The translations under genes and the position numbers were made by a program. Shown in pieces: positions 6,801 to 53,420 of a stretch of 64,000 bases of DNA (position 1 is its first letter; each line of letters begins with the position of its first letter). The notes under the pieces are model-generated. The model did no database searches and was not told the DNA's origin. It was given only the letters and a program-made list of their open reading frames with translations. This DNA is from Liolophura sinensis (Eukaryota; Mollusca; Polyplacophora; Chitonida; Chitonidae): contig NC_088300.1 of assembly GCF_032854445.1 (NCBI RefSeq), positions 22,673,608 through 22,737,607 of the forward strand, given 5' to 3'.

Positions 6801-9800
6801 TGTCTTGTGTTTGCAGTTTTAACCGTCATATCCCACACAAACAGTGTGCCTGATTGTATTTGCAGTTGTAACCAGCGTACCATAACTTTATGTACAATCA
6901 GTCTGTCTATTTCTCTCTCGTCAGCACCCTGTGTACATCCACCACCCAGAGTTGCTAACGGGAGACGGGTGTTTTTTGGCCAGGAACACGGGGATCGGGC
7001 GCGCTACAGCTGCCTGGTGGGTCATCAGCTCACAGGCCGATTCCTCAGGTGCCACTACGGCAAGTGGGTGGGTCAGAAACCAAGCTGTACAGAAGGTAAC
7101 CCATATGAAAACCTGATGATCAAACCTGTAACTGTATAAACATTTAGTACTTTGGTTTATTGGTGGACAGGTGATACCTGGAATATAACTACAAAGTTAT
7201 TCAAATATTATCTTGGAAACTATATAAGTATGAGGCTTGCAGACTATCACCACGATTTCCCAAATCACACACGTGAAACCCATCCACAGAGGCCACTGCA
7301 GTGGGTTAAAAGAAAAGTTATCAAGTCCAAAGACTAAACGAAGTAATGTCACTGTGACCTGTTAATGCTTCGTGTCCCTTAACTTATCGCAAAGAAAATC
7401 CAACCTAAATGATTAGAACATTCAGGACGATTAGCGATAATAATGAAAACAGCATAGAGGGTATAACCAGAACAGTGACGACCGTGTGATAGTTGGCAAA
7501 TGGTCAAATGTAACCGGTGAAATATGGTCTCTTATCAGTGTACCTGTTATAGTTTGCTAAACAATGGCTGTTTTACAATCATTCTTACTTTACACACAAC
7601 TGTCATTTTGTTGTGAGGACTGATGCTTTTCCATAAAAGCAGTTTTACAATCCTCTGGCGAACTGTTTCCATTGTCTAACAAAATAGTTTTGCGCAAAAC
7701 TTAATTCCATTGTCTTCCCTTTCATCATTTACCTCTCAGTGACGTAAATGTGGCATACTTTTCACGTCAGATGCTTCCTAAGTATTGTTTACATTTATCT
7801 CAGTTGTATCCGTTGTTTTAGGTAAAGATGAATTGGGTGGTTAGGCTGATTAAACTGAAGATTGGTTTACACAAATGGAGTATTTATACCTTATTCACCA
7901 TACTAGGTGCAAGACAACGGTTTCAACGTTAAGCCCCCGGAAGGTTAGACAAAACACGTGTTAAGAGAGTTCTGTAATGGAATGATGGATGATATGGTAC
8001 GCCAAGAGGAAGCTGCGCTATTGATGGATGGGTACAGTGTTTTATATACGTCAAGGAATCATAGCGCAGGTACTTGGTGGTTAGAAAGAGCTCTAATATC
8101 GTTAACCGTAATTGATGTTGGAAAGTCGTGTCTGAAGGCCTGGAAGAGTGACTCGAGGTTTATAAAATTCTGCTTCTCTAAAACAAACTTGTCAAAATCT
8201 GTTGACTACAGGGAAATTGGCCGTTGGGATCGCCTTCGTTTAGGGCCACTGGATTTTCGACATCAAAACAAAGGAGAACATTGATTATTGGCCCCTTTTG
8301 TGTTAGGGTAGTGTTGTCTAGAGGTCACATATCCTGGACAGTTATCTTTGAAGAAGGTTTAAGCCATCAAAATGATGAATTATTCTTCTGAGAATAATGA
8401 CGCTTTTGTGGAAAATTTCTCTTCAGAAACTAGCGCCCGAGACTGTGCAGTTTCCCGAGGCTTCCTTCGATTAGTACATCATTACTTTGATTCCTAGCCT
8501 AACATAGAAATTCGTGATCCTTGAAGCACTATTCTCTACCATTCCTTTGTAGTTGATGGACGCTCGCTGTCTACCGTATCCTGGCAACCCAGGCTGTCCC
8601 ACTACTAGGACCATGGCGGACAGTGGTACAACACCGCTTTTCGATTTGATAACAGCCTTTAATAACCTCCAAATTGCCACTTGTGGACAGTTAAGGCCAT
8701 TTCCATTGCAATTTTAATCCTTTGAGTGGAATAAGTTTTCGAAAGCGACAGTAATAATTGATCAGTGCCGATGGGCCACTTACAGAAACCTTTGATCATC
8801 TTAATTGCCACTTTGACTCCTGTACTTATACATACGCTGAATGACTAGTGTCTCCAGTCCTTAGAGCTGGAAGCGTTGAACTGAATCATTGATCCTAAGC
8901 TGATCTCCACCACGTACGAAAATCCCCTTATCAAAAAGATGATCTGATACAAAAAGATGATCTTTTTGGTAGCCGAGGTTTCTAAGGAGACATTCAAATC
9001 ACAGAACGTAACACAGAACGTAACACACTTTTCAAATCCAGCTCTATCTTCTTGTCTAACGAAGATTTTCCCAAGATATTGATCTTGGCATATATCCGCT
9101 TCCGCAGATCTGACCACCGTGATAGACATCTGTATGTACTCTTTAGCATGGCGTAAAAGAGCTGTCAAGCAGACTTCTAGAAAGTCAGGTTGTATTTCTA
9201 AGCATTTTGGTAAAGAGGCTAGATTTCACCGGTTACGTGTGACCATGTGCCAACTGTTACACTCTCTTCGCAGCTCTGGTTTTACTCTTCATGTTGTATA
9301 GTCCTTTACATCTTTTGGGAGCACTAACGTTTTTTGTTCTTTAGCCGTTGATCATTAAAGTTGCAGGGTCGAACCCAGGAATCGCTGATTAGGCCGAAAC
9401 TTTTAAATCTGCACGTTTTTTTCAGATACTTGGCCAAGGACGGTGGTCCCCACCCTATGTATAAAAATCAAATTTATCTTGTCAAACAGAATAAACATCT
9501 GTTACATGTCTGAGGGCAAGATCCACTCATAAAGTTAGCCACCTAATCAGGAACCAATCAATAACGTAAGATGAATATAAATATTTATTTTTAAAATTTC
9601 TTTTGTTTCAGCTTATTGCCCAAACCCTGGAACATTACCTAACGGACAAATTTACAAAAAAGGCTCTATAGGAAGATTTAAGTTTGAAAAATACATCACC
9701 ACTATTCGCCACGGCCACAAGTTGGAATACGAATGCAAGAGAGGATATAAGAGAGTTGGCCCCAGCGGTTCTACCTGCGTGAACTCTGAGTGGAGTCCGA

Positions 9801-14305: not shown

Positions 14306-17300
14306 ATGTTGCCTCTGACTGTTCCTGTCATCTTATCAGTGTTTGCCCTACGGATTAATGCCATAGATGAAGGCTGTGTTAGCCCCAAGGCGTTTGGCTT
14401 CCAGAGCTGTGCTCCAGGTTGGGCAGTGGCCGGAGTACCTGTGAAGCAGATGTCCGTCTACAATGAAGCGCAATGTGCCCGAGAATGTGTGAACAATCCA
14501 GAATGCGAATCTATTAATTTCCGGATCAACCCGTCCTTTTCCGGTTTGTCAGAGTGTGAGCTTCATCCGAGAAAGGTCCCTTGTGGGAGTTTAGATCCAA
14601 TGCCAGGATACGTCAATATGAGACAGGTTTGCTTACGCGTTTTTTTATTTCATATATTTAGATGTATTTGTGCTTTTTTAACACTGTACTCAGGAATATT
14701 TCGCCTATACGACCCCAATCAAGCTTTACACATTGAGCAATCCTCGTTCTAGGCCTACCAGGAGAAAACCCTCACACTACAGCCGGTATATGCCAATGTG
14801 CATCAAGTGAAGCCGTAGTGTCTACAGTAAAGCCCGGATTTGACCACGAACCTCAGTTGCCAGAGACATGGCCCCAATGATTTCAATCTAGGCGTCAAAA
14901 CAGACATTCGTATTCTAGCCGTCAATTAAAATGGACGTTCCGGTTCAACATTCGTAAGACCAGTTTCCCAAAAAGAAAAAAAAACCGGAAATAAGTTAAG
15001 AAATTAGGACGGTTTCATTCCAAGAGGAGCATTCAACAGTCTTCAAAGATTAGGGAAGGGCGCTGGGAAATTATGTGTATCTTCTGTGAATCTTGTAGGA
15101 TATCAGTCAATAAGTGATTAAGTTGTCCATAATTGAAATATGTATCTCAGTTGCACCTTGACTGCAAGCGTACATATATTCAACATGGCGATGCAATTCG
15201 CTGTTTCTTATGAATATTCTGTTTCTTGGATTATTAGCACGGCGTTTTGGATGCAGATACTAACATCATTCGTCCTATCAAGATTATTTGTTTATTTATT
15301 TATTTGATTGGTGTTTTACGAAGTGCTCAAGAATATTTTACTTATACGACAGAGGCCAGCATTGTGGTGGGAGAAAACCGGGGTCCTATCAAGTGGTTCA
15401 TTCGATACCATTGTTAAGATGTATACCACAAAGTCATACTAATAAGCCAAGAAGTTGTCTATCCATAAGGAACATCTTGCATCTTGTCTATGCGTCGAAA
15501 AAGACATTCGTATGCTAGTGGTCCACCAGTAAGGACGTTCCGGGTCAATGGTAGCAATATAATTTATGACGCACAGCATAGAGAAAAAAACCAGAGCAGC
15601 GACGACCGTGTGATCCCAAAGAGATGCATAATACAAACCACCAAAGAAGTAAGAAATGGAATTTGCCGGAATCTTGCAAAGAGAAGCAGTCAACAGTTTT
15701 CAGTGATGTTTGAAAGACGCTAGGTATGTTTTATCAGTATTGAAATCGTGATCCATGCTAGCGTATAATTTGTCGTATATGTATCTCAGCAGCAGAATTA
15801 GACACTCTGATGAAACAGAGCACCGGAGATTTATTTACAGGAGAACTATACTCATTGTAAATCCCAAGAAACTTACAGTGAAGACGTTTGATGGAATAAC
15901 CTTGACACATTAGTTTTTACAGTAATAATTTGTGACGTTGATTGAAATCGTCACACAACAGACAGGATGTAACAAATGCTACAAGGCGAGATACGTACAT
16001 GCCATATGCAGGACCTTCGGTATATTGCTGTCCAATTTTGTTATAACATATAGAATCCCTGTTATACAGTATAACAACTCAACTCGTTACGGTGATTAAC
16101 ATGAACGCATTTAGGTATGAAGTAATATGCTAGATACTCAGTTAGCCTTTTCCCGCCGGATAAATCTCAGACAGGAAATGTATAAATCCACTAACACACA
16201 AACAGGAAGACCGTCGGCCGTGCTTGATAGACGTGCGCCAAAAGCCTCATTGGTACAGAGAACACTTTCCTCACCCCGTATATATATTTGGGAGAAAATC
16301 AAACATGCCTTGCAGTCAACTTTGAATTTTAACAATGTTAAACGAAAAGACAACACTGAATCAAATGTATATATGCATCGATAATGCATTCTGCGTATAG
16401 TTTAAAAAGCGTATCTTTTTTCAGCATATCGATAGCGCTGCCATAATCGCTCAGTTATTTTTACAAGGCGAGAATGCAGCTATTTTCATGCACTGACGTC
16501 AGACGAGCCCATAAGTGCGAGGTGTACGAGTTACATTGCACCTTGACTGTTTGTTTTTTTTTTTGCATGAATCCGTCATTATTTCATACTTTTTACACTT
16601 TCATGGTTTGTGCTAGACGTTGTTTAGGAATTGACCTTGCAATTATCGACCTGGAAAGTCTGTTTCATCACCTCCTCTAAATAAAAAAACATTAGTTGAC
16701 TCTATTTCCTGTCTTTTCTATTAGTTTTATGCTGCAGATGTACCATTGTACGGACAGAAAATCGGGGTTAAAGGTTATTTAAATAAGTACGACGATCACA
16801 GGCTGTTAATTAGCATCTAATCACACTTCTAATCATACATTGTGTCAATTTATTTGTTTTGTTGTCTCCATCATGCTTGTTCTCATCACGCTGTCTTCAG
16901 CAAGCATTCATCAATGATTTTATCACCACCATTCATTTGTTGAGCAGTTTTACTATACTGTCTTGTTCCTCAAGCTTACCTTGAACGCCTCTGTATTTCC
17001 CTTGTTGGCTTTAATATTCTACTGCTGTTTAGATCATCCTTATTACGCATTCTGGACAATTGTTTAGGATCAGTCTCATCAGTAATGACTTAGAGGGACC
17101 CATAACTGCTGAATAAAAAAAATTCTCAAACAATTAAAGAATAGATTAAACAAGATGTACAAAATATACTAAATGCTAGTTATGTCAGTAGTTATCTCCC
17201 TTGCATGGGCTGTGAGGAGTATGCAGTCAAACATGGCGGTTGGAGTTAGAATTTATCCAGTCTCCATTAGTTCCATGCTTGTGTGAATTTATTAGCGATG

Positions 17301-18789
17301 AGACATGGGAACAAATACCTGGAATTGATAGCTGAAACGACTATGACTACGGACAGACAAATTATGTGCTGCTCAGCAGTAGAATATTAAATCCAACAAG
17401 GGAAGTGCAGAGGTGTTCAAGGTAAGCTTATAGAACAAGACAGGGCTGTGATAGTATACGTAATTACAGTTCTACAGAGCCACAGTTTTACTATCACCGG
17501 TACGTCTTCTCGTTTACAGCTGGAGACTTTTCATGCGTGCATCTCCGAGGCCTCACAGGTAAGAGGCGCCGCATTCATGGGGAATAACTCTTACATGCTG
17601 TTCTTTGACAGCACTATGCAGATGTTTAAGCTTACTGACCAAGTCCTGTATGCCGTGGAATGTCCGATAAAACTGACTGACTACTTCCTGAACTGGCCTG
17701 GACCACCGCAAGCCGTTTTTCGCTCAGATGCTCTTTTGGCTACCGGACCATTTTATGTTGTGCATGGTTTGTCACACTTTAATACATGAGGCGGATTCCA
17801 CGAGGTTATTTCTGACTTAAGTCAAAAACATAAAACATCGTCACAAGGCCTTGTGTTTGTCACTTAAAGTTGGGAGTTTAACCCATTTACTTCTAAGAAA
17901 ACATTTATGAATTGGGTAAAATTTCAATTTATAGGACCCCAAATATACGTCTAAAATCGTGTTACAAATTTTGACTTATCTCAGAAATGGCTTTGTGGAA
18001 TCCTGTCTTAATGTTAAGTATTATTTTTAGACTGAACAGTAAACCTAAAAGTGTTTATGGAAGATTCTTTGCTAAAATGATGGAATTTGTAGCGCTGCAA
18101 GCAGTATATAAACAATGTTACCCTTACGCTATCCACAGTAAAATATACTTTCTCTGATGAACCAGACAATTTTGGATTACCGATCAACTTGAAACTGGTT
18201 GTAATATCAAAAAGGAGCTAAATTTTTTTGAACTTGCAACAGGCAGGCCATTTGTTAAAAACTGATAAACAGTGAAGTCAAACCAAACCAAAGGCAGTCA
18301 TGAGTATACAAAACTAATGGTACCTAATCTACGCTGATGTTAATACCACGTTTAACTGCTGATATTCTTTTGAACAACTGGACGTAGCACAATTTTAACA
18401 GTAGGCCTATGCCTTGTCTTGCAGACAACAAAGTACACCAGTACGTGAGTACAGGTACACAAGCCTTTCCGTCTATGTTCTCCCCATGGCCTCTACACAT
18501 CTTCGATTTCTTCAACGTCAGCATTTCCGGTAACGTCACAGCTGTGTTTACCACTGGGGACAGATTTTACGCATGTACTGATGACGGTATTTACGTCTCG
18601 AAATACGAAAGCTTCGTAAAACTATTGCCTGTTTCAGGCATCCCAGAGTTCAGCTTATCTGACGTCACGGCCGTTGCTACAGAGACGGGATTGGATTCAT
18701 TGTTGATTTTTATTGACAACACTTACTACCTGTTTGATTTCACAGGTAACACAGTGTACGGTAGAGGCAAAGTCTGTACAAATCTATAG
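14306..18789 (+). CDS. Secreted PAN/Apple plus hemopexin-like protein, copy 1
   Basis: Three exons: 14,306-14,626 (phase 0 out), 17,520-17,766 (phase 1 out) and 18,425-18,789 (TAG). They give 310 residues. Residues 1-19 are a signal peptide ending at RINA. A PAN/Apple domain follows with Cys 24, 35, 57, 61, 67, 84 and 93, including CARECVNNPEC. From residue 108 come four hemopexin-like blades: VRGAAFMGNNSYMLFF, PPQAVFRSDALL, VTAVFTTGDRFYAC and VTAVATETGLDSLLIF. One Cys before blade 1 (HACIS) and one at the end (KVCTNL) could form the disulfide that closes hemopexin propellers. No protease domain, membrane segment or GPI signal is seen. PAN domains bind protein or glycan; the ligand here is unknown. 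Exon 1 uses the weak donor GTTTGC, as do its paralogs. Domain calls are by eye. Confidence 0.85.
15285..15380 (-). mobile_element. SINE family A, inverted fragment in intron 1 of copy 1
   Basis: TTTATTTATTTATTTGATTG followed by GTGTTTTACGAAGTGCTCAA and a CTTATACGACAGAGGCCAGC block match the SINE 3' end in reverse. A family C fragment (ACCAGAGCAGCGACGACCGT) follows near 15,585. Confidence 0.7.
17793..18003. mobile_element. Foldback (MITE-like) element in intron 2 of PAN-hemopexin copy 1
   Basis: The left arm GGATTCCACGAGGTTATTTC plus TGACTTAAGTCAAAA pairs imperfectly with the right arm TTTTGACTTATCTCAGAAAT plus GGCTTTGTGGAATCC. It is about 210 bp with no ORF. The same arms bound elements at about 40,037-40,248 and, more worn, 55,261-55,420. 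Confidence 0.75.
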
Positions 18790-18990
18790 GCGATGCTCAG
18801 GTTACGGACATGCATAAAAATGACAAACTGTTGTTACCGGTATACCGAATGACATCTGAGATTTACCACACACACGTGCCGTATAAATGTTGTAGTAATC
18901 AACTTAAACTAATTATTACCGAACCTTCGTTAAAATGTTTGCTCAATTCTGTATATCTTCATTTGGCTCCCACCTAACGACATTGAAGTA

Positions 18991-18996
18991 AATAAA
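18991..18996 (+). promoter_or_regulatory. Candidate polyadenylation signal of PAN-hemopexin copy 1
   Basis: The first AATAAA after the TAG stop, about 200 bp downstream. It is supported by position only. Confidence 0.4.
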
Positions 18997-19009
18997 GTGT
19001 GTATTTTTA

Positions 19010-19190
19010 CAGAAACTTTTGCTGACAGTTTGGGCTACCCTGTGTGTTGTGTATACAAATTTACGACCCCTTTTGACTGTAAATATAGTACATGTAGTTT
19101 GGCTACCCTGTATGTTGTGTATTACAAATTTACACTCCCTTTTGACTGTAAATAAAGTACGTGCAGCCTGGGCAACCCTGTAATTTTTGT
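19010..19190. repeat. Two-and-a-half-copy tandem repeat
   Basis: A unit of roughly 75-80 bp recurs: TTTGGGCTACCCTGTGTGTT, then ACAAATTTACGACCCCTTTT and GACTGTAAATAAAGTAC. Confidence 0.75.
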
Positions 19191-21849
19191 TTTCAAATTG
19201 ACGCCCCTGTTCAATAACCTGTCCAATAAACACCTACGTGATGTCATGTTAAGCTAAAATCTGTGTACTTAATTGGAGTGAGTGAACGAGTGCTTGGGAT
19301 TTGACGTCGTACATAACAATTTTTCAGTCATATGACGACGAAGGAATCCTTAGTACTTAATTGGATGATATGTCAATAATGTATTTCGACAGAAGGTATT
19401 TGCACTGTATTTTTGTGGATTTATATTCCATTTGCTTTCGTTAAAGTATTTACAGAGCTTTTGTCTTTCGCAAAATACAGCAAAATATAGTGTAACCAGG
19501 ACTATCGGTGAATATAAAGCCTATATATAGGGACGTAGTCTTAGGACAATTAGACCTTAATACCTGCTAGATGCACATGTTGAGCCTCAACAGGAAAACG
19601 TCATAGAGATGCTCGTTCCATCTGTGAAATCACTTTATAGTTCAACTGGAGTCATCAGACATCATACACCGCCACAAAAAACACGTGCCCTCCTAGATCT
19701 ACTTGTTGATTATAATGTTTCCGATTAGCTACATTTGGAATCACAATCACGAGGCTCCATGTTATAATTAGGAATTGTGTTAACAATTGTTGCCGCAGTT
19801 TTTAAATGTTAAAGGAAAACATAGAAAAATGACAAATGTAGAGGTAACAGAACTATTGTTAGCACCCAGAACAATATTTATTAACTAAGCGTTTTCTTCG
19901 TAAATGGAATCATAAATCCAGTTGTGTTTTCATAATAACTTTCAGAAATAATGCAGTTATTTTGAGCTCAAACGTGACGTAAGTGACGTTCTGTTCCTCG
20001 TTTGACGGTGGAAGGAGACGTTACTGTCGCAAGTCCGCCTGTTACGAAGAATTCAGAGAGCACATCTACTAATTTCTGGGTCGATGGAGGGCGCAGTCTC
20101 TTAAGGATTCTCCTTAAAGAACAAGCATTACTGTGCTATGATAGACCCCCATACTGGGAGAGTTTGTCTCATCTTAGGAGGGAAGGAATCCCTTCTAGGC
20201 TGGGGTGTATCTGTAAACATCACGGGCAACACAACCATAACAACCCCGCTGTACTGTTGCCATATGTTAGCGAGGAAAGCCCCACAACCTTGATCGGTGA
20301 ATTAGCTGATCTGTTTCCGAAAACGAGGCTCGCACGAGCAAAGAGAGATTTGCCAACAGCCAATAAGAAAATGTCAAGCGCCTGCACTATCCATTGAGGC
20401 AACCTGCATGATTGGTTAATATTTTGACACTTCCATTCAAAAACTGACTGTCATCATAGTAAGTTTAATATTGTTCAGTATGAGATTTTAAGCAACAATT
20501 AAAGATAAATAAATATGTAAATATTTTGACATGTGGTCGGATACAGTCGTCGCGATTTTGTCTATTTCCGCTACTGCCTACATTTAGTTATAGGTCTGTA
20601 TGTATGTGGTTATTACTATACCGGTAGTCTATTTGTTTTAGAGAGTCGCTTATATTCAGCTATCAGTAAAACCAGTCACACTCTCTACCAAAATTACCTT
20701 TAGTCAATGACATGTAACCACATAAGCTCTACACATTGACATGTTTGAAGTTCACATTATTGCAAGGAAAATATAGCTAGAACACTTTTTCAATTCATGA
20801 TGCTGATCTCCATAAGCTCGGTTTCGAGAGCCAGAACCCATTGACTCGGGTGACGTCATAATTATAAAAAAACAGTGGCATGCTGGGAGTCCAATATGTT
20901 TTGACGGTGGGCGGCACCAGTCACCTAAACTACTATCGATTTTACTGTAAACCCTGCCTCTGAAACTCCATACTCGAAATTGTTTACACGTTTTAATAAT
21001 ATAACCATAATCAATAAATTTTATTGTACCTGTTGTAGTGTATGATCTCACGTCAGTATGATTTTAAAATTGGATATTAGGAAAGTGTTATAAAAAATAA
21101 TCTAGTGTACGTTTTTCAATAAGTATGACGTGACCCGAGGCAGTGAGTTCTTGGCGTCGAAACTGAGCTTATGCAGTTTAACATTATGAATTAAAAACAT
21201 TATTCTCATTTGATTTACTTTGCAAGAATATGGACTTCCAACATATCAATCTGTAGGCAATTATGGTAATGAGTATGACTGATTTTACAGATAGCAGAAT
21301 GTAGGCGACTCTCTAAAAAAACACACTATAACTACTATTCCACATTATTACCTCTCTTCTTTCTTTCTGTGCTCTTTTGAAATGGCGAGACGAACTGGCC
21401 TTGGTTTTAACTTGCATTAGCTGCGCAGAGAAAGAATCAAGACTTAAAATGGTCACATATTATAACAATACTATACTATTATAACAAAACACATTACTTT
21501 GTGATTCCAAGCACAGTGTTTTGCACCTTTCCTTGACCCTGAGCGACAGTAGTTGGCTCTGGTAACACAGTGTGTCCTATACGTCTAGTTTCGTGACAAA
21601 GAGTTGTATGCCACGGCTTTAATACAAAACTCTGTGATTGATAATATCAATAAATAATCCCTGAACTGCCGCTTATCAACAGTTAAGGCTATTTCCAGTG
21701 GAGTTATAATCCATTGAAAAGAATAAGGTTTCTAAGGTGACAACCAGAAGAATTCCAGAAACCGTACATCATTTCACCTGTCACATGTCCTAAGTCTCAT
21801 TTTCCTCAACCCCGTTTCATTTACCGAATGAGCATAAAGAATGTCATGA

Positions 21850-22130
21850 ATATAATCACAGACGTACGGAAAAGAGAGTAAAACCAGAGCAGCAACAGCG
21901 TGATAGCTTGTAAATGGTCACACCTAACCGGTAAAATAAGGCCTCTTTTCAGTTTACCTCAGCCAGGTTTTACTCTAACTGTTCGTGTAATGCATAAATA
22001 GTAGCAATTAACGCGCCCACTAGCAACATGGCTTAAGCAGACTTAGGTGAAAAAAAATATATTGCGGTGATTCTAATTGCAGTTTATTAGACGTCACTTG
22101 TCTAGAATTGCTCAAAAATGCTGTGTGGTG
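21850..22130 (+). repeat. Dispersed repeat, family C (plus copy)
   Basis: Its order is GAGAGTAAAACCAGAGCAGC, AACCGGTAAAATAAGGCCTC, TTTTACTCTAACTGTTCGTG, CGCCCACTAGCAACATGGCT and a GTTTATTAGACGTCACTTGT tail. A near-identical second copy follows at 22,235-22,440 in the same orientation. Confidence 0.8.
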
Positions 22131-22234
22131 ATCACATTTAACATACAGTAACATTAAAACAATACAAAGGGATCAGGCCTCGGAGGTGCTTAGTCCACCA
22201 GCAGAATCTGGTTTATGCAGGAATACAATATAAT

Positions 22235-22440
22235 TAAAGACGTACATCATAGAGAGTAAAACCAGAGCAGCGACGACATTGGGATCGCAGGCTAATGGTC
22301 ACAGTAACCGGTGAAATAAGGCCTCTTTCAGTTTACCTCATCCAGGATTTTATTCTAACTGTTCATGTAAATGCATAAATAGTAACAATTTACACGCCCC
22401 CTAGCACCATGGCTTAAGCACAATTAGGTAAATGAATTAG
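22235..22440 (+). repeat. Dispersed repeat, family C (second plus copy)
   Basis: It starts CATAGAGAGTAAAACCAGAG and keeps the same block order as the copy about 370 bp upstream, ending with CCCCTAGCACCATGGCTTAA. The pair may be a local duplication or two insertions. Confidence 0.8.
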
Positions 22441-23689
22441 GTGAATGCATTCCTGTCCGGAAAAGCTGAAAATCTTGGAAAAGTCCTCTTCGCCATTATT
22501 CTCAACAACTTCAAGATAGAATACAAATGTGAGAGGTGTGATAAGGTATTTCAGCGGCTCAAACTTTGTGATCGACTATGATATTTTCTGTCATAGGTTA
22601 TCAAGGATATTTCATAAATACCAAACGTATACAAAGACGTTTTGTATAACCCAAAATTTGGAAAATGACTGCTTGTTCCTTTGTTCTAATATTTGCTTTG
22701 ACATTCAGTTTTTTATTGACTGTCTTATTAAATATATGGCCGCAACACTATTGACGGAGCAAACTGTTTGTCGCTGAAGCAATCTTGATATCATGACATT
22801 TTTGTCTCCATCCAAGGAGTTTCTTTTTGTCCTTGTTAACAAGACTAGTTCAACACTTAAGAAAATCAACAAAATGCAATTACTGAAAATTAAAACCAAA
22901 GAGTTGAATGGCACTTGACTGGTGAACAAGATGGGTTGACCAAATCGAACAGGTTCTCTCGTGATATCAATGCTATATATTGTGTTGGTTTAACAAATGA
23001 AACGAGCCAACGTGTACACTGCTTATTTGACAGCTTTTTCAAGGTATCCAGAGACAGTGTTTATTTCTGATTCTCGCCAGTTCTTAAAATTGAGCAGATG
23101 CATATAGATTTTTTTTATCCTAAGATAAGATAATAAGGGCGTGATACCTTGTCAACGCAATCAACCCTTACCATGTTACCTGTCTTACAGACTTCTAAAA
23201 ATCACATTCTTGCACCAGAAATCTAGTGGTATAGTGTTATAAGCAACCGCCTACGGATCCAACAGGCAGTCTAATGGAAGTTCGAAACCAGAGCGTTTCG
23301 TGAAAAACTATGGAAATACTTTCAAACATGTATGAACTGCAAATAATGCAATGCAGAAATCTCATAACGGTGACACGTGACAGTATCAAAATGATAAAAG
23401 TCTTCTTTCCGCAGTTCTTCATTGTATGCAAACTGAACATCTCCCCATTCAGTTTAAACCAAATGAAAAATCAGTTAAAGCACGTGACCGTGAGAAACAT
23501 ATGACGTTAGAATGCACGTGGAAATCAGTATGTAAATATTACCTATTTACATACTTAGGTAATATTAGCGTCAGCAACTTTGTTTGGGAAACTCTTACTT
23601 GACAGCGAAGGACTTCTAACTCTAACTTTGCAACATGCCGTCAGGCCTATCTCAATATCTGCTGCAAGTTTTAGTAAAAATGTTCGGGA

Positions 23690-23990
23690 CTAGTGCAAGA
23701 CGTGGCTTCTGGGCTTCCTAACTATATTGTCAGTCAATCTCTCAGGGACCAAAAACGCAGATGAGGCCCCAAGGGGTAAGGCTTTCAGAACTGTGCCCCA
23801 GACCGGAGATGTCAAGAGCACACGTTCGCCTGAAACCAAGTCCAATGTATTCGGAAGATGTGTGAACAATCCGTGCAAGTGCGAATCCGTCAAATTCCGG
23901 CTCGACTCTTTCTCCTCTGGCTAATGGAGTGCCAACTTCAACGGAATAGTCTCAACGTCCCAATGTCAGGGCATGTAAATATTAAACAGG
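23690..23990 (+). pseudogene. Decayed first exon of a third PAN-hemopexin copy
   Basis: The stretch aligns by eye to exon 1 of the intact copies. A leader-like ILSVNLSGTKNADEAPRGKA is followed by a damaged middle, then RCVNNPCKCESVKFRLDSFS, then in another frame MECQLQRNSLNVPMSGHVNI. It ends at AAACAG|GTTTGG, the same splice donor as the paralogs. A frameshift, an in-frame stop (TAA after SSG) and lost cysteines mark it as dead. No matching exons 2 or 3 are visible before the next copy starts at 24,986. Confidence 0.8.
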
Positions 23991-24985
23991 TTTGGAAAAA
24001 TTTTTTTAACTCGTTTAATTGTTGTATGTCTTACAATGTTACCATTATTCGCTGTGTATGAGAACGGTGGAGCGGCCTGTGGGTAAGGTGGGTAAGGTAC
24101 TTGCAAGGCTCACACGAGGTGAATCTTTTGATTTCCTCTTCCAGTTTGTTAGACCTTGTTGACGATAAACATGACGCTCATGTGACTGTTTTTGCACACT
24201 ATAATATCCAATGTCCAATGAAATTTGTCCTCTACTAATTTAGTGGGCCTATCTATATGTGTCAAACGTGGGTATGTTTGTCCGTCTTACCGAAATATAT
24301 TGCGCCAACCGAACAGAGTGTTGTACATGTCGTCCACGACATAAAGTACAATTTTTTCCTGATTCCGAGAATTCCTTTGATCTAAGAAAGGTGTTTTGAT
24401 GTTTGTTTGAATGGTTTTATTATATCTTACTGGAAATGTAAATGTTCAATACAAAAAGCAATATTTTATTACCTTTTTTGATTCCAAAATACACATTTTG
24501 GGACGAACTTTTAGGTCAGATACACCAAATAAAAATCACAAGAAAATACAAGTGATTGGCTTCATAGGCATAAAGAATAGTAGCGATGTCAGAGTGTGAA
24601 TTTTATGTCACGGAGAGAACGTAGAATCGAGCTTGAAATGGCATTAAGAAATCGAAGATAAAAGACCAGTGTCCAGTGTTGTTTCTGTGATTCACTGTAT
24701 CAGTTAATGGTTGAGGAAAGGCTTTCAGTTACAGTATGCAAATATTGATCGGAAGTATAATCCTGTTTGCCTGCCAGATGGTCAGTACGTAAACACCCTA
24801 ACTCCGAATAAAAACCATGTACAGTGGCAAATTTCAACAGAATATGTCCCGCTAGGGCTGCTGCCATGATCACGGACAAGAGTTGAGTTGGATATAACGA
24901 TACACACACCTATATATCTGTAAGCGTCAAGTCTGACATTCCTATACCATTCGTAGTCCGTAAAGGGCGTTCCAAGTCTAACATA

Positions 24986-27208
24986 ATGCTCGCCACGTTT
25001 TTGGTGATGTCGTGGGCGTTTGCCCAAGTCACTGAAGCCGCCTTTAAAAGCTGTGTTACCCCAAGAGGAAACGTTTTCCAAGCCTGTGCCCCGGATTGGG
25101 CAGTCTCCGATGCCCAATTAAAGCAGGTGTCCGTATACACCGAGGTGGAGTGTGCCCGGGAATGTATGTACCACCCGGATTGTGAATCTGTTAATGTCCG
25201 ACTCGATCCGTTCTCTTCTGGGGTTAGAGAGTGTCAGCTTCTACCGCACGGGATCTCTTGTGACGAGTTAGACAAGATGACAGGATACAAGTATTACAAG
25301 AAGGTTTGGCAACTGTATTTTCCAAGCTTTGGAGTAATATTTTTTGAGCGAACCAGATCAACGTTAACTTTGTTTAAAATAAAAAAACGTCTAAATCTAG
25401 TTGATAATTTCAGATAACGTTTTCTGTTTTCTAGTGGTTTTTTTTTTGGTTAATGCGATTGCTTCTTTAACAAACGTTTGGGCGATGCGTGTTTTTATCA
25501 TCTAAAACAAGGCCATACAATGAAGACTTACCACCTATTGGCGCTTATTGGTGGTTAGTGTGCTAGCGGCGTTCTCTAGGCTAATATGCTCTAAGAATGG
25601 CTCCATATGAAGAACCTTTTTTTGCTTTTGTCTTGTAAGCAGATCCCCCACGTATGTGTTACCAAATCGCCGGATGTTAGAGCTGCCACTTTCCTTGGGA
25701 ACGATACATACCTACTCTTTTTTGACGGCATCATGCAAGAATTCAAACTGACGGATCACAGCATGTATCCTGTGAGCTGTGCAATGAAACTGGCGGATTA
25801 TTTCATCAGCTGGCCAGGACTGATAGAAGCTGTCTTCTACTCGGATGTTCTGGTTGTCGTCCAGCCACTTTATGTGATCCATGGTAAGATTCTGTTGGTC
25901 CAAAAAACTACTCACGTAAATACTGACATTCCATGCTCCTTTTTTCTGCCTAGGTTATCAGCAACATTGTTGGTCAATGGTATACTTGTTTAAGCCATCA
26001 GTTTGCCTATAAAGTTTAACGTCGCTTTCAAAATGATTTCGGTCATATCATGGCGGCGTCTCCCTGTAATAAACATCGGTCCGGTGGTAATGTCCACATA
26101 CTCAGATTGCTACCTCCCTGAACAAATGACACAGACGAGGGCATTATTTGGCTTAACCCCCTTACAAAGCGCTAAATTACGGAAATTATTGCCAGTGAGG
26201 TCTTAGGCGTCACTGAGACACTGTCTGTCAGTCGCTCGAAATAATGCGTAAGAGGCGTGGTCGTCCTGTTTCTTAACCCTTTGGCTAGACCCATGCACAG
26301 TCATTCTTACAACACAGAACTTGTTAGCAAGGGTATAAGATGGACCCAAACGCGACAACCATCCCTAATTTCATTTTATCGTTTTTCACTTTGCTAATCT
26401 CAAGGGCATTGTATTATTGGCCAGTTGTGTGTTTTAAACAAATCAAATAACTACATTCCCCACTTTCCAGCTCAGCGCCTATCTCCTGTTTGGCGGACAT
26501 TAGGTATGCTTTCAAATGTTATGATTGTGTATGGGGGTATATAAAGGAAGACCTCGCGTCTAGTTCTACAAAAGCTGTCCTGAAGGTCCATAGCGACAAA
26601 AAGTGAGGGAGTAGGAAGATCATACATTTGAGGAGATTTCGTGCGACTCAAAAGAGTCGACAAGTCATGATAACAGCAGACGGCGCAGTGTGTCAAGGAA
26701 GATCTGTTTGAAGAGAATTATATATAGTAGCTTTATATATTTTGAAATTCAAGGCTACGTACCTTTTTTTAAGAACTATGGACGCTATCACCAACATTCC
26801 TGTTACTTTGAATTTATGCTTTTATGTGCAGATAAAAAGGTCGAGCAGTATCTCATGACAGAAACCAAGGGTTACCCTTCAACATTTCCGCCATGGCCAC
26901 GAACTACCTCCGATTTGCTGGGCGCAGGGGTCATTGATAACGTCACGGCCGTTTTCTCCGACGGCCATAAGTTGTATACCTGCACAAAGACGAACCTGTA
27001 TACATCCGAGCTGATGGAGAATGGAACAGAAGTTATTGGCGTCAACGGCGGACTTACAAGCCCGGAGTTCCGATGGTCTGACGTCACGGCTGCTGCCTTG
27101 GACACGGCAAAGGAATTTGTGACATTATTCGCTGGCAATAGCTACTTCCTGTACAATATGACAAGCCAGATTGTCGTCGGCAGAGGCACTGTATGTACCA
27201 ATGTATAA
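24986..27208 (+). CDS. Secreted PAN/Apple plus hemopexin-like protein, copy 2
   Basis: Three exons: 24,986-25,303 (phase 0 out), 25,643-25,883 (phase 1 out) and 26,832-27,208 (TAA). They give 311 residues with the same intron positions and phases as copy 1. The signal peptide is MLATFLVMSWAFAQVTEA. The PAN domain has the same seven Cys, including CARECMYHPDC. The hemopexin-like blades are VRAATFLGNDTYLLFF, IEAVFYSDVLVV, VTAVFSDGHKLYTC and a fourth with VTLFAGNSYFLYN. The Cys pair bounding the propeller (HVCVTK and TVCTNV) is kept. By eye roughly half of residues match copy 1. Its introns are much shorter than those of copy 1 and hold fewer repeats. NVT, NDT, NGT and NMT sequons suggest glycosylation. 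Function is unknown. Confidence 0.87.
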
Positions 27209-27689: not shown

Positions 27690-27830
27690 TTTCTCCGGCC
27701 GTAAGTGGGATGGTCTTCCAGCAACCTGCGGATGGGCGTGGGTTTCCTCCCACCAGAATGATTGCCGCCGTCGTATAAGTGAAATATTATTGAGTACGGC
27801 GTAAAACAGCAATCAAATAAATAAATAAAT
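27690..27830 (+). mobile_element. SINE family A, 3' part
   Basis: CTCCGGCCGTAAGTGGGATG, CAGCAACCTGCGGATGGGCG, ATTGCCGCCGTCGTATAAGT, GAGTACGGCGTAAAACAGCA, then an AAATA tail. It is better preserved than the other copies. Confidence 0.85.
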
Positions 27831-29044: not shown

Positions 29045-30085
29045 AAAAAGGTTTGCCAGGTACGTGGTGAAGTATGGAGACTTGACAGGTACCTAGTGAG
29101 GTGTTAAGGTTTGTCAGGTACCTGATGACTTGTGAAGGTTCGCCCGGTACCTGATGACTTGTGAAAGTTTGTCACGTACCTGGTGACTGGTTAAGGTTTG
29201 TCAGGTACATAGTGAGGTATGAAGGTTTATTAGGTACCTGGTGACTTGTGAAGGTTTATCAGGTACCTGGTGACTTGTGAAGGTTTGTCACGTACCTGGT
29301 GACTTGTGAAGGTTTGTCAGGTGAATAGTGAGGTATGAAGGTTTATCAGGTACCTGGTGACTTGTGAAGGTTTGTCAGGTGAATAGTGAGGTGTGAAGGT
29401 TTATCAGGTACCTGGTGACTTGTGAAGGTTTATCAGGTACCTGGTGACTTGTGAAGGTTTGTCACGTACCTGGTGACTTGTGAAGGTTTGTCACGTACCT
29501 GGTGACTTGTGAAGGTTTGTCACGTACCTGGTGACTTGCGAAGGTTTGTCACGTACCTGGTGACTTGTGAAGGTTTGTCAGGTGAATAATGAGGTATGAA
29601 GGTTTATCAGGTACCTGGTGACTTGTGAAGGTTTATCAGGTACCTGGTGACTTGTGAAGGTTTATCAGGTACCTGGTGACTTGTGAAGGTTTGTCACGTA
29701 CCTGGTGACTTGTGAAGGTTTGTCAGGTGAATAATGAGGTATGAAGGTTTATCAGGTACCTGGTGACTTGTGAAGGTTTGTCACGTACCTGGTGACTTGC
29801 GAAGGTTTGTCAGGTACATAGTGAGGTATGAAGGTTTATCAGGTACCTGGTGACTTGCGAAAGTTTTTCTGGTTTGTCACGTACCTGGTGATTTGTGAAG
29901 GTTTTTCAGGTACCTGATGACTTGTAAAGGTTTATCAGGCACCTGGTACCTAGTGAAGGTTCGTCAGGTACCTGGTGATTTTTGAAGGGTTGTCAGGTAC
30001 CTGGTGACTTGTGACGGTTTGTCAGGTATTCAATGACTTGTGAAGGTTTGCCAGGTGACTTGTGGTTTGTCAGGTACCTGGTGAC
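29045..30085. repeat. 29-bp minisatellite, about 35 copies
   Basis: The unit is GGTTTATCAGGTACCTGGTG plus ACTTGTGAA, with GGTTTGTCACGTACCTGGTG variants. Most units carry an AGGTACCT or CGTACCT core. Higher-order blocks alternate with GTGAATAGTGAGGTATGAA variants. It lies directly upstream of the decayed fourth PAN-hemopexin copy. Confidence 0.95.
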
Positions 30086-30129: not shown

Positions 30130-32220
30130 TAAGGTTGTCGGGTCCCGAGTGTAAATCCGTGAATTTCCGATAGAATCCGTCGTCGTCTGGGCTGAGAGAG
30201 TGTCAGTTCTATCAGACAATGTCCAATGTGAAAAGTTAGAGCAAACACCTGGACACAGACATCTAAAACAGGATTGTGTGCGTTCTATTTTGCAGACAAA
30301 TTTTTACATTATATCCCTGCCCATGCAGAATTTTCCTCAAAAACGTGAATCTGTTCAAGGATTAAGAGTCTGAAATTTGATTTACATATTATCCTAGCTT
30401 TAGATTTACAGTTTTAATATTACAGGTATTTCTTTCATATTCCTTTGGGAAGTTAGGTTGTTCTGGAAATGGACCGTGCGATTACAGAATAGAAACACCC
30501 CATCATGGCCAACGAGCGTTATACGAATGTCGAACAAAACTTTGAACAATAAATTTTTACTGCCATTTTAATCAATAATAAATAAAGATAAGCGATACTG
30601 ATAACGATGTGCATGATTGTGGTGATGTTAATGTTGTGACAATGATGTCCACAAATCAGGAATCCATAGGTAACAAAGAATATCACAGAGCCGTGTACAT
30701 CTTGTGCCATAAGCAAATGTAACATGCTGATTTGTTACGTTCTTACCGAGGAAAAACAACGCCATGGTGCAAATATATGGAACTGCCGTTCATGACATGA
30801 CCATGGCCTTTGTTATAGGTAATCACGTGTTTTCTTCTCTGCAACAGGTAGCCTGTATAGAGCAATGTCGACCGATTGATTCCTAAGTTAGGGCAGCTAC
30901 CTTCATGGGAAACAACATCTACTTCTTCTTTTTTGATACAACACTGCAGAAGTTTCATTTGATTGGTCAAACCCTTATGCGGGTAGACGACCCGATACTA
31001 CTTACGGATTATTTTATTGGCTGACCTGGACTAGTACAAGCGGCCTTCCGCGTAGAAAACATGGACAACATTATTGAAAATCTTTCTTCATTGTACATGG
31101 TAGGTCTTTGTTTGTCTTTTCGAAATTTAGTCACAGATATTTATGCACAAAAGCCGGGTGCTCACTTTCATCGTCATGGTATATGTAAAGTTATCAAAGA
31201 TGTATTGCACTGAAGGTTGTAATAGATGCATATGATGCTAAGGCAGGGTTGTCGGTAATGATGGGGCTAAAGCCGGGAGGGCGGAGCAAGATGCATGTGG
31301 TGCTGAGAGGGGGTGGTGCTAAGCTTGTGAAAGATGCATATGGTCCTGAAGATGGAGTGCCTGGAAGGCGGGAAGGTTGTGAAAGATAGATGTGGTACTT
31401 AAAACGGTATTAAAGATGCGGCCTAACGTTGGGGTGGTTTTAAATATGGTGCTGAATTCGGACTGGTTGAAAGAGATGCATATGATTCTGATGGCGAGTT
31501 GGATGTTAAAGATGCTGCTAAAGGCAGGAGGTTTGAGAAAGATACAGATGGTGCTGAGGGCGAGTGGTTGCAAAAAAATCGTTAAGGCGGGAAGGTTATT
31601 AAAGATTGTTCCTAAACACAGATTGGCTGTTACATATGGTGCTGAAATCAGGGTGGTTGTTCAAAATGGTGCTGAAGATGAGAGGGTTGGGAAAGACTTA
31701 TATGGTGCTGACAACGGGGTGGTTAAAGATGGTGCTGAAGGTAGATTGGTTGAGAAAGATGATGAGGTAGATTTGGCTAGGGCGTTGTTGTGACAGAGTC
31801 GCTTTTTTTTTTTTACTCTTCAATTTAACTCTGTCAGGGTTTTTATAATTGATGGAGAAATTTCGTCAAATATGTCAAAACGAAACTCCCATACTAAATA
31901 TAACATTGTTATTACAATTGTTTACGTCACAATGACGTTCTCGTGTACGAAGACACATCAGGCAATAAGCTCAGTTTAGGAATGACTCTGCGACCGTATG
32001 AGACGATTATGGATTTCTTGACGTTGATAACGTCACTGCAATGTTCTGTACCGAGAGAGACTGGTATAACTCGGAATTATTTCACCCTCCAACGACTTTC
32101 GTTTCACCGGGGATGTATACTGACAGAGATGTCGTAATGTTCACAGGAAACACCTACAACCTGATTGACATCAACCATCATCATGTTAATGACAGAGGCA
32201 CAGTTTGTACAAATTTGTAG
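30130..32220 (+). pseudogene. Decayed fourth PAN-hemopexin copy
   Basis: Remnants of all three exons appear in order. At 30,138-30,280 there is a PAN fragment (CKSVNFR, stop, then SSSGLRECQFYQ). At about 30,890-31,100 there is an exon 2 match (VRAATFMGNNIYFFFFDT, then LLTDYFIG, stop, PGLVQAAFR). At about 31,935-32,220 there is an exon 3 match ending in YTDRDVVMFTGNTYN and RGTVCTNL, stop. Several in-frame stops, small indels and loss of the signal peptide and first PAN cysteines make a functional product unlikely. The intron between exons 2 and 3 is occupied by a minisatellite. The final VCTNL-stop is still intact, so decay may be recent or uneven. Confidence 0.8.
31205..31790. repeat. Irregular ~35-bp minisatellite in the pseudogene intron
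   Basis: Diverged units share AAAGATGCATATGGTGCTGA followed by GGCGGGAAGGTTGT-like spacers. They open a spurious 133-codon plus-strand frame. Confidence 0.8.
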
Positions 32221-32384: not shown

Positions 32385-33130
32385 AAGCAGTCCGTGAGGA
32401 ATGTGGCTGCAGGATCAATTCCAGCACACGTTAGTCAGGGTGTAGCTTTAGGCTTAAACCCAGCCCTCGCTAGATATGGAGTACTTGTAGCTTTAGGTTT
32501 GAGTCCAGCACATGCCAGTTAGGGAGTAGCTTTAGGGCTGAATCCAGATCACGCCAGTTATGGAATAGCTTTAGGCTTGAATCCAGCTCTCGGTTGTTAG
32601 GGAGTAGCTTTAGGTTTGAATCCAGATCACGATAGTTAGGGAGCAGCTTTAGGTTTGAGTCCAGCACATGCTATTTAGGGAGTAGCTTTAGGTTTGAATC
32701 CAGATCACGCCAGTTATGGAATAGCTTTAGGCTTGAATTCAGCTCTCGCTAATTAGGGAGTAGCTTTAGGTTTGAATCCAGCTCTCGCTAGTTAGGGAGT
32801 AGCTTTAGGTTTGAATCCAGCACACGCTAGTTAGGGAGTAGCTTTGGGGCTGAATCCAGCACACGCTAGTTAGGGAGTAGCTTTGGGGCTGAATCCAAAT
32901 CACGCCAGTTATGGAATAGCTTTAGGCTTGAATCCAGCTCTCGGCAGTTAGGAGTAACTTTAGGCTTGAATCCAGATCACGCTGTAGTTAGGGAGATCAC
33001 GCCATTTATGGAACAGCTTTAGGCTTACATCCAGCTCCCGCAAGCTTTAGGCTTCAATTCAGCACGTTATAGTTCGGTGTAAGATTTAGGCTTGAATACA
33101 GCTCTCCCTTGTTCTGCTGTAGCTTTAGGC
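32385..33130. repeat. 39-bp satellite array
   Basis: The unit is TTAGGGAGTAGCTTTAGGTT plus TGAATCCAGCTCTCGCTAG, about 18 copies. Sub-blocks alternate GATCACGCCAGTTATGGAAT variants. The 13-codon period produces a spurious minus-strand ORF. Confidence 0.93.
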
Positions 33131-33650: not shown

Positions 33651-34340
33651 AACTTTTCCAACAATAGGATCATTTTAACACTATAAATATAATTCAGGTT
33701 TACGAGCCTGATATTTAATAAAATACAATAATTTGAGCCATTCTCAGTAAAATTAGAAAATTTGGATTGATCGACGAAGAAGGATTTTATTACCAAAGAT
33801 CTCCGAGTAGCTTCTTTCACAGCTAGACTTGTGCTGACTGGGATTGGGATGAAACCAAGACTTACCGCTGCCTTCAATCCACATGCATGACTCTCAGCGG
33901 GCATGCACGTGCATTTAACAAGTCCCTTTCTTTTGCTAAAACTATGTTAATTGATTTCTACTGAGATTTGTTTGACAAGACATTAGTGTACCGGTATTTG
34001 TTTATAAATGCCTCAAAGTGTAAATGCAACGTTATTGGCTTTTGTCTTGAGGCTGGTTCGCCAGCTAATTGGTATCAATACTCTTGTTTTCCTAATGCTA
34101 TCGTATAACACCCGACTGTGTGGATTTGGCACGAATGGGTATATAATTATTAGTGGATTTTGCACTATCATTGATTGTGCCTGTTATCAACAGAAAACAA
34201 AATGCAACATCTACAAAATCTTTTGATTCAGAAATCCGTTATGTACGCATGCGTTCATGTGTTCATTGTATGTTAAGTTATCGTGCTGCTTAGATATGCA
34301 CCATCCGTATAGTTCATCTGTAAATAAGAATGTATTATCT

Positions 34341-35018
34341 GTTACACAGGCTAAGCGTAGGGGTGAGGAATGCATTAACTGTCACACAGGCTAAGCGTAG
34401 GGGTGAGGAATGCATTAACTGTCACACAGGCTAAGCGTAGGGGTGAGGAATGCATTAACTGTTACACAGGCTAAGCGTAGGGGTGAGGAATGCATTAACT
34501 GTCACACAGGCTAAGGGTAGGGGTGAGGAATGCATTAACTGTTACACAGGATAAGCGTAGGGGTGAGGAATGCATCATCTGTCACACAGGATAAACGTAG
34601 GGGTGAGGAATGCATTAACTGTCACACGGGCTAAGCGTAGGGGTGAGGAATGCATTAACTGTCACACAGTCTAAGGGTAGGGGTGAGGAATGCATTAACT
34701 GTTACACAGGCTAAGCGTAGGGGTGAGGAATGCATCATCTGTCATACAGGCTAAGCGTAGGGGTGAGGAATGTATTAACGGTCACACAGGCTAAGGGTAG
34801 GGGTGAGGAATGCATCATCTGTCATACAGGCTAAGCGTAGGGGTGAGGAATGCATTATCTGTTACACAGGCTAAGCGTAGGGGTGAGGAATGCATCATCT
34901 GTCATACAGGCTAAGCGTAGGGGTAAGGAATGTATTATCTGTCATACAGGCTAAGCGTAGGGGTGAGGAATGTATTATCTGTCATATAGACTAAGCGTAG
35001 GGTTGAGGAATGTATTCG
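34341..35018. repeat. 40-bp satellite array, about 17 copies
   Basis: The unit is GTCACACAGGCTAAGCGTAG plus GGGTGAGGAATGCATTAACT. Units are highly similar to each other, so expansion was probably recent. Confidence 0.97.
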
Positions 35019-53141: not shown

Positions 53142-53420
53142 ATCCTCTCTATTCAGCTACGTTGCTTATTTTATAATAATACGATAATCAATTCATAAGC
53201 ATTACTCGGTAAAATTTGAGAGCAAATTTTTGTTGTCATGCTGCCATGATACAAATATGTCGTTTCACCGCGCTGGACGATTTAGTCGTAATTTGATTGG
53301 CTGTGTAGGTGCAGTGCGTCAATATCAGCCAATAAGAGCCCTTTACGGTCAGAGGTGCAGACTATCTAGCTCAATAACTTCGCTTCCGGGTGAAACTTGA
53401 CAGGTCATTTTTCTAGGAGG
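53142..53420. promoter_or_regulatory. Divergent promoter between DYNC2LI1 and KIFBP
   Basis: Only 279 bp separate the two start codons. The segment has an inverted CCAAT box (GATTGG, 53,295-53,300) and a direct one (AGCCAATAAG, CCAAT at 53,329-53,333) about 30 bp apart. No TATA box is obvious at a suitable distance from either ATG. Paired CCAAT boxes without TATA are typical of bidirectional housekeeping promoters. 5' UTRs of both genes must also fit here unless further upstream exons exist. Confidence 0.65.

What the first reader, a model, noticed from the sequence alone, without database searches (positions are those of the whole stretch)
14306..27208. Tandem secreted proteins joining a PAN/Apple domain to a four-bladed hemopexin-like propeller
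Two intact three-exon genes share intron positions and phases. Both encode a signal peptide, a seven-Cys PAN domain and four hemopexin-like repeats with the propeller-closing Cys pair. I know of no well-described small secreted protein with this architecture. Hemopexin domains usually follow a protease or stand in heme-binding plasma proteins. Whether they bind heme, metal, glycan or a pathogen ligand is open.
Basis: partly seen in the sequence, partly recalled or inferred. Interest (0 to 1): 0.75.

Follow-up and report, generated by a model that had tools for sequence, protein, structure and literature searches.

The report
Tandem chiton PAN–propeller secreted proteins
A chiton (a marine mollusc) carries two neighbouring working-looking genes, plus two decayed copies, for a small secreted protein that joins a PAN binding module to what looks like a very divergent hemopexin-type four-bladed propeller, an unusual pairing of two known parts whose function is not yet known.

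Summary
The window lies in the Liolophura sinensis chiton assembly. Gene A (exons 14306-14626, 17520-17766, 18425-18789; 310 aa) and gene B (24986-25303, 25643-25883, 26832-27208; 311 aa) share both intron positions and phases (0, 1), 46% of residues and all 11 cysteines; pN is well below pS. The PAN domain passes the Pfam cut-off. Pfam finds no hemopexin repeat. Three other lines point to a divergent hemopexin-type propeller: a profile comparison with three hemopexin domains (E 0.0028 for that one comparison, probability only 10.9%; 0 of 600 column shuffles as good); exon-wise AlphaFold models of low confidence (pLDDT about 56) with four-stranded blades; and hemopexin-fold chains heading three of four structure listings, all with weak scores. 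The propeller was found only at this locus of its genome. Most likely it is a secreted glycoprotein that binds two partners, built like vitronectin; ligand unknown. Expression, a closed ring and the closing disulfide were not tested.

The parts
14306..14626 (+). Gene A exon 1: start, signal-like N terminus (about residues 1-19), seven-Cys PAN domain
   Evidence: ORF from ATG to GT donor; PAN_1 28.5 bits on the exon (cut-off 21.4)
17520..17766 (+). Gene A exon 2: Cys before blade 1 (C114), blade 1 (about 17562-17705), first half of blade 2
18425..18789 (+). Gene A exon 3: rest of blade 2, blade 3 (about 18535-18663), blade 4 (about 18664-18786), C-terminal Cys (C307), stop
24986..25303 (+). Gene B exon 1: start, signal-like N terminus, seven-Cys PAN domain
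   Evidence: PAN_1 21.8 bits on the exon, 19.6 on the whole protein
25643..25883 (+). Gene B exon 2: Cys before blade 1 (C111), blade 1 (about 25679-25822), first half of blade 2
   Evidence: 51% identical to A exon 2
26832..27208 (+). Gene B exon 3: rest of blade 2, blade 3 (about 26942-27082), blade 4 (about 27083-27205), C-terminal Cys (C308), stop
   Evidence: 43% identical to A exon 3
23768..23989 (+). Decayed exon 1 (PAN) with frame shifts and stops, between genes A and B; still ends in ACAG|GTTTGG; the window search showed no exon 2 or 3 with it
30135..30212 (+). Decayed copy C, remnant of exon 1 (PAN core only, in-frame stop)
30851..31063 (+). Decayed copy C, exon 2 remnant (in-frame TAA and TGA; 51% identical to A exon 2 over 71 columns)
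32002..32217 (+). Decayed copy C, exon 3 remnant (parts of blades 3 and 4, 31% identical to B over 98 columns with long gaps, keeps the end VCTNL)

Best explanation
Genes A and B encode paralogous small secreted glycoproteins (about 32 kDa, acidic) of a chiton: signal peptide, one PAN/Apple module, then a divergent hemopexin-type propeller of four blades closed by a Cys pair. They most likely work as two-ended extracellular binding proteins, like vitronectin or PRG4, in which a small Cys-rich module sits before a hemopexin domain: the PAN module holds one partner (protein or glycan) and the propeller another, in matrix, mucus or haemolymph. Eleven cysteines in each leave at least one unpaired within the chain, so a disulfide-linked dimer is plausible. 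Shown here: exon structure, conservation, PAN match, statistical resemblance to hemopexin domains, tandem array with two dead copies. Inferred: secretion, glycosylation, the closed ring, the disulfides, the binding role. Not known: ligand and tissue.
For: Gene anatomy and constraint. PAN. Hemopexin likeness: hhalign of the A+B propeller profile against a profile of MMP14, MMP2 and vitronectin hemopexin domains gives score 26.3 and E 0.0028 (for one comparison, not a database search); 0 of 600 column shuffles reach it (best 22.7), the reversed profile scores 11.4; the alignment runs from the end of blade 1 through blade 2 into blade 3 in register. A smaller comparison with this genome's own hemopexin exons lands on the same WPG..AVF place; 4 of 300 shuffles score as high. 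AlphaFold on exon 2: four strands then a short helix; on exon 3: helix, then twice four strands. A motif A[AVT][FALW] occurs at four places in each protein at blade spacing (48, 57 and 43-47 apart; motif chosen by eye, no chance control), and blades 1 and 4 of A align better than 1000 of 1000 shuffles, 1 of 12 blade pairs to do so. Fold listings: of the 50 rows shown, 8 (exon 3) and 9 (exon 2) in Foldseek and 6 and 11 in VIA are hemopexin-fold chains, first. N-glycosylation sequons: 3 in A, 4 in B, two at shared places.
Against: No PF00045 match. A HMMER model of five own-genome hemopexin stretches: 394 of 2000 shuffles score as high for A, 60 of 2000 for B. No PDB sequence match with one sequence (only a beta-lactamase at E 1.8) or with the A+B profile. 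hhalign's own probability is low (10.9%, 1.4%), and its global fit is poor and in the wrong register. Models have mean pLDDT 55-57; the best Foldseek E-values are 0.16 and 0.43, with 0 matches at E <= 0.001 of 579 and 766; exon 3 superpositions on hemopexin chains have rmsd about 10-14.5; best VIA Z is 5.9 and 3.7, in the range that may mean only a common arrangement and tied with unrelated rows; many other rows are other propellers. 11 of 12 blade pairs do not pass alone. No transcript evidence. B has one 19-residue stretch of mean hydropathy 1.63 from residue 167, so a membrane segment is not strictly excluded.
Confidence: 0.6

Rival explanations
1. Haem or metal carrier: the propeller binds haem or iron in haemolymph, or serves the iron-rich radula of chitons, as hemopexin does in plasma.
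For: Hemopexin itself is among the top fold matches (4rt6_B, 1qhu). Chitons make iron-mineralised teeth (recalled, not from a call).
Against: Hemopexin holds haem between two propellers by paired His (recalled); here there is one propeller's length and only two invariant His in its alignment. No expression data.
Confidence: 0.12
2. Recognition protein of immunity or gamete contact: a tandem, birth-and-death family whose PAN and propeller faces bind microbe or egg-coat glycans.
For: Four copies, two dead, at one locus; A and B have diverged to 46% identity; PAN modules bind glycans or proteins (recalled).
Against: Whole-gene pN is well below pS: no sign of positive selection in this one comparison; only two live copies; no ligand or lectin test was done.
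Confidence: 0.2
3. The C-terminal 200 residues are a beta-rich domain or propeller of another kind (WD40-like or new), not related to hemopexin by descent.
For: No HMM hit; low hhalign probability; many rows of the fold listings are other propellers.
Against: About 200 residues fit four blades rather than seven; shuffle test and register; blade-end helix and Cys pair.
Confidence: 0.15
4. Genes dead or not expressed as drawn: both are relics like the other two copies.
For: Weak GTTTG donors; dead copies beside them; no RNA seen.
Against: Both frames are open over 930 nt with all Cys kept, pN 0.32 against pS 0.70; an AATAAA or ATTAAA lies 202 nt (A) and 337 nt (B) after the stop.
Confidence: 0.05

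Closest known systems
Vitronectin (somatomedin B + hemopexin-like domain)
   Same: Small Cys-rich N-terminal module before a hemopexin-type propeller, secreted glycoprotein (architecture recalled); its hemopexin domain is one of three in the profile that matches
   Different: Module is PAN, not somatomedin B (no such Pfam hit); no sequence-level match; propeller far more divergent
Matrix metalloproteinase hemopexin domains (MMP1, MMP2, MMP14)
   Same: Blade register in profile alignment with MMP14 and MMP2; MMP1 and MMP2 among fold matches; Cys before blade 1 and at the end (MMP pattern recalled)
   Different: No protease domain found by Pfam in A or B; where these have IDAAF-like motifs, A has RGAAF, PQAVF, VTAVF and VTAVA
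Hemopexin (plasma haem carrier)
   Same: Same fold class by weak matches (1qhu Z 3.7, rmsd 3.6, 57 aligned; 4rt6_B E 0.16)
   Different: One propeller's length instead of two (recalled for hemopexin); PAN present; two invariant His
PAN/Apple proteins (PF00024)
   Same: PAN_1 over cut-off, Cys core CxxxC(x5)C...C
   Different: Followed by a propeller. PAN_1 matches 64 places in this genome, A among them and B not listed; at three of the four weak relatives of the A PAN exon elsewhere, about 9-10 kb was fetched and no convincing propeller exon was found
Plant hemopexin-fold albumins (CP4, LS24 type)
   Same: Among the best VIA matches of exon 2 (3v6n Z 5.9, rmsd 2.5, 60 aligned; 3oyo Z 5.3)
   Different: No PAN and no such Cys pair (recalled); weak score

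Membership tests
PAN/Apple domain (PF00024) | Profile match over the curated cut-off | tested here: met
   A 26.0 bits (28.5 on exon 1), B 21.8 bits on exon 1 alone but 19.6 on the whole protein, cut-off 21.4
PAN/Apple domain (PF00024) | Core cysteines with helix-strand arrangement | tested here: inconclusive
   Seven Cys conserved in both; the PAN exon was not folded
Hemopexin repeat (PF00045) | Profile match over the curated cut-off | tested here: not met
   No hit with limit E 10 for two whole proteins and six exons, four of them propeller exons
Hemopexin-type propeller (fold class) | Profile-level resemblance to known hemopexin domains beyond chance | tested here: met
   hhalign E 0.0028 for one comparison, 0 of 600 column shuffles as good, but probability 10.9%; weaker test 4 of 300
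Hemopexin-type propeller (fold class) | Four blades of four strands with short helices | tested here: inconclusive
   Blades 1, 3, 4 seen as four strands in low-confidence exon models; blade 2 split between the models and not resolved; Foldseek and VIA matches weak
Hemopexin-type propeller (fold class) | Disulfide between the Cys before blade 1 and the Cys at the end | not testable with these tools
   Both Cys present and conserved; bond not modelled because the full-length protein was not folded
Hemopexin (haem carrier) | Two propellers with haem-ligating His | tested here: not met
   One propeller's length only (about 200 aa); two invariant His
Matrix metalloproteinase | Zinc protease domain before the hemopexin domain | tested here: not met
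   Pfam finds only PAN models in both proteins
Vitronectin/PRG4 | Somatomedin B domain | tested here: not met
   No such Pfam hit with limit E 10

The most novel reading that the evidence does not exclude
A so far undescribed, lineage-restricted family of secreted PAN-plus-hemopexin-type-propeller proteins: a molluscan counterpart of vitronectin, assembled independently from a different Cys-rich module, that bridges matrix, mucus or microbial glycans, possibly as a disulfide-linked dimer.
Probability: 0.35. Interest if true: 0.5.

Novelty: new variant of a known kind. Interest (0 to 1): 0.36.

Why it matters
Hemopexin-type propellers are known mostly behind proteases or in plasma proteins (recalled). 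A small secreted PAN-propeller protein would add a second, independent way in which animals turned this fold into a stand-alone adhesion or recognition protein, and would show that such domains can hide below Pfam's threshold. The effect is modest: both parts are known, and the role is unproved.

Tried and rejected
Pfam, NCBIfam (the three exons of A only) and PDB sequence searches for the propeller gave nothing useful. A HMMER model from five own-genome hemopexin stretches did not separate A or B well from shuffles (394 of 2000 and 60 of 2000 as good). Pairwise blade comparison passed for 1 of 12 pairs. Global hhalign gave a wrong-register fit. The PDB profile search with the PAN exon alignment found nothing at E <= 10. 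In one search I used three of the five sequences printed; the other two are further MMP2 chains, nearly the same as the one used.

Wider family: genome searches with the A propeller matched only this locus (five places at E <= 0.001), while the A PAN exon gave four weak matches elsewhere (E 0.006 to 0.44). Three of those four places (L005, L006, L007) were fetched and scanned with HMMs of the three exon alignments: their PAN exons scored (E 1.5e-8, 5.6e-7, 1.1e-4); the best propeller-exon score in them was E 0.069, a 33-codon frame of L007 that lies inside a longer frame which I read as a retroelement (no call identifies it); I take it as chance. L006 has a similar first exon (signal-like start, PAN, phase-0 GTAAGT donor), so the PAN exon has relatives and the propeller none found. 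The fourth place (C7:32119912) was not fetched.

Paper searches beyond those on the architecture: (hemopexin-like, mollus, secreted) listed four papers, one; none was opened. The naked mole-rat paper listed was not opened. Haem binding, MMP and vitronectin membership are rated in the rival and membership sections. Families missing from the VIA listings are not taken as excluded. The viral structure library was not searched.
Full report
Where it is. The window is G000:C6:22673608-22737607 of a 609,464,459-base genome in 632 contigs. The genome holds eight matches in a row on C8 to PF14830, the beta-sandwich domain of haemocyanin (that this is the mollusc type is recalled). The assembly published as Liolophura japonica has 632 scaffolds, 609,495,693 bases and a scaffold_8 of 31,077,156 bases (PMC11068029, passages read); contig C12 here is 31,077,156 bases long, the total differs by about 31 kb. 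The authors have since corrected the species to Liolophura sinensis (PMC12441733, whole text read). So the host is taken to be this chiton (Polyplacophora; lineage).

The genes. Joining exons 14306-14626, 17520-17766 and 18425-18789 gives an open frame of 310 aa; joining 24986-25303, 25643-25883 and 26832-27208 gives 311 aa. Both introns sit at the same places, phases 0 and 1. The donors of intron 1 are the weak AG|GTTTGC and AG|GTTTGG, but the decayed exon 1 between the genes keeps ACAG|GTTTGG, which supports the site. The proteins share 141 of 307 aligned residues and all 11 Cys. Over the CDS pS is 0.695 and pN 0.321; over the PAN exon 0.532 and 0.299; over the propeller pS is saturated (0.768, pN 0.324), so ratios are rough, but the excess of silent change is clear.

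The array. tblastn in the window finds a decayed exon 1 at 23768-23989 and a decayed copy C with remnants of all three exons between 30135 and 32217. In the genome, the A propeller matches only this locus: five places, namely exons 2 and 3 of A and B and exon 2 of copy C. The A PAN exon matches A, B and copy C, then four weak places elsewhere at E 0.006 to 0.44. PAN_1 itself matches 64 places, A among them (a lower bound), PF00045 six, neither A nor B among them.

PAN. PF00024 matches A over its cut-off as a whole protein and as an exon; B only as an exon.

Is the rest a hemopexin-type propeller? By simple profile search, no: Pfam shows nothing for either protein or the four propeller exons, HMMER with own-genome hemopexin exons is not convincing, and PDB searches with one sequence or the A+B profile find no hemopexin. 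Profile against profile, there is a signal: A+B against MMP14, MMP2 and vitronectin gives score 26.3 and E 0.0028, which counts for this one comparison; hhalign's own probability is 10.9%. Of 600 column shuffles none reached the score (best 22.7), and the reversed profile scored 11.4. The aligned stretch joins PIKLTDYFLNWPGPPQAVF of A to PMPIGQFWRGLPASINTAY, and NVTAVFTTGDRFYACTD to KIDAALFWMPNGKTYFFRG, so blade 1 end, blade 2 and blade 3 start fall in register. An earlier, smaller test pointed to the same place with 4 of 300 shuffles as good. The forced global fit was poor and in the wrong register.

Models. Only exon translations were folded, with two-row alignments. Exon 2 of A: mean pLDDT 56.5, four strands (16-21, 24-28, 32-39, 42-45) and a helix (52-57); residues 11-50 are the best part, at block means of 66-77. 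Exon 3 of A: mean pLDDT 55.4, a helix at 26-29, then strands 37-42, 47-51, 54-58, 65-67 and 80-84, 92-96, 99-103, 110-115. This is the strand and helix order of hemopexin blades (recalled) for blades 1, 3 and 4; blade 2 lies in the poor parts. Foldseek puts hemopexin 4rt6_B (E 0.16) and MMP1 (E 0.17) first for exon 3; 8 of the 50 rows shown for exon 3 (of 579 matches) and 9 of 50 for exon 2 (of 766) are hemopexin-fold chains, none with E <= 0.001, and for exon 2 other propellers rank first. VIA puts 1qhu (Z 3.7, rmsd 3.6, 57 aligned) and 1su3 (Z 3.6, rmsd 3.6, 57 aligned) first for exon 3, tied with other propellers, and 3v6n (Z 5.9, rmsd 2.5, 60 aligned) first for exon 2, tied with an unrelated small protein (3kvp); 6 of 50 and 11 of 50 rows shown are hemopexin-fold. 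That 3v6n, 3lp9 and 3s18 have this fold is recalled; 3oyo says so in its title, and 3oyo and 6ix1 also match hemopexin repeats by sequence. These Z values are in the range that may mean only a common arrangement. I read the three lines together as good, not final, evidence: about 0.8 that the domain is a hemopexin-type propeller.

How it may work. A signal-like N terminus, sequons at two shared places, no other Pfam domain and acidic mature chains of about 32 kDa (cut after residue 19 assumed) point to a secreted glycoprotein; one stretch of B in blade 2 reaches hydropathy 1.63. PAN and hemopexin modules are both protein- or glycan-binding (recalled), so a two-ended binder is the simplest role. 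The odd Cys number leaves one Cys free, which suggests a dimer. None of these steps was tested. The dead copies show gene birth and loss at this locus.

Literature. Searches for hemopexin with PAN domain, Apple domain, PAN Apple, PAN1, mollusc terms or chiton showed no paper on such a protein. Searches returned nothing; one search listed two papers, of which one, on sea anemones, was opened (PMC12549020, one passage, on polydom proteins; hemopexin is not in its main text); one search listed 15 of 146 and none of those 15 held 'hemopexin domain'. The library is open access only and no animal protein collection could be searched, so the pair may well be annotated elsewhere.

Verdict. A new combination of known modules, seen here in one species: moderate interest.

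Noticed in passing
53394-55235 (+): KIF-binding protein (KBP_C, E 1e-130) in one uninterrupted 613-codon frame; the only KBP_C match listed in this genome, so the gene seems intronless here.
   Followed up: partly
29048-30056: A 29-base minisatellite of about 34 copies ends just before the PAN remnant of copy C (30135); the start of that exon is missing, perhaps through the repeat's growth.
   Followed up: no
6422-6873, 32420-32995, 34328-35016, 43713-44369, 50271-51050: Other minisatellites (periods 51, 39, 40, 26, 58); those at 6.4 and 43.7 kb keep long open frames that need not be genes.
   Followed up: no
6939-7088 (+): A sushi-repeat match just below the Pfam cut-off (20.0 against 20.7 bits) next to a 51-base minisatellite.
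   Followed up: no
L006 about 400-738 (G000:C13:21260200-21260537): Another exon with signal-like start and a PAN domain ending at a phase-0 GTAAGT donor, like exon 1 of A and B, but with no propeller exon found in the fetched stretch.
   Followed up: partly
27690-27830: A short interspersed repeat-like stretch ending in a run of AAAT, of a kind I recall from molluscs; not identified by any search.
   Followed up: no
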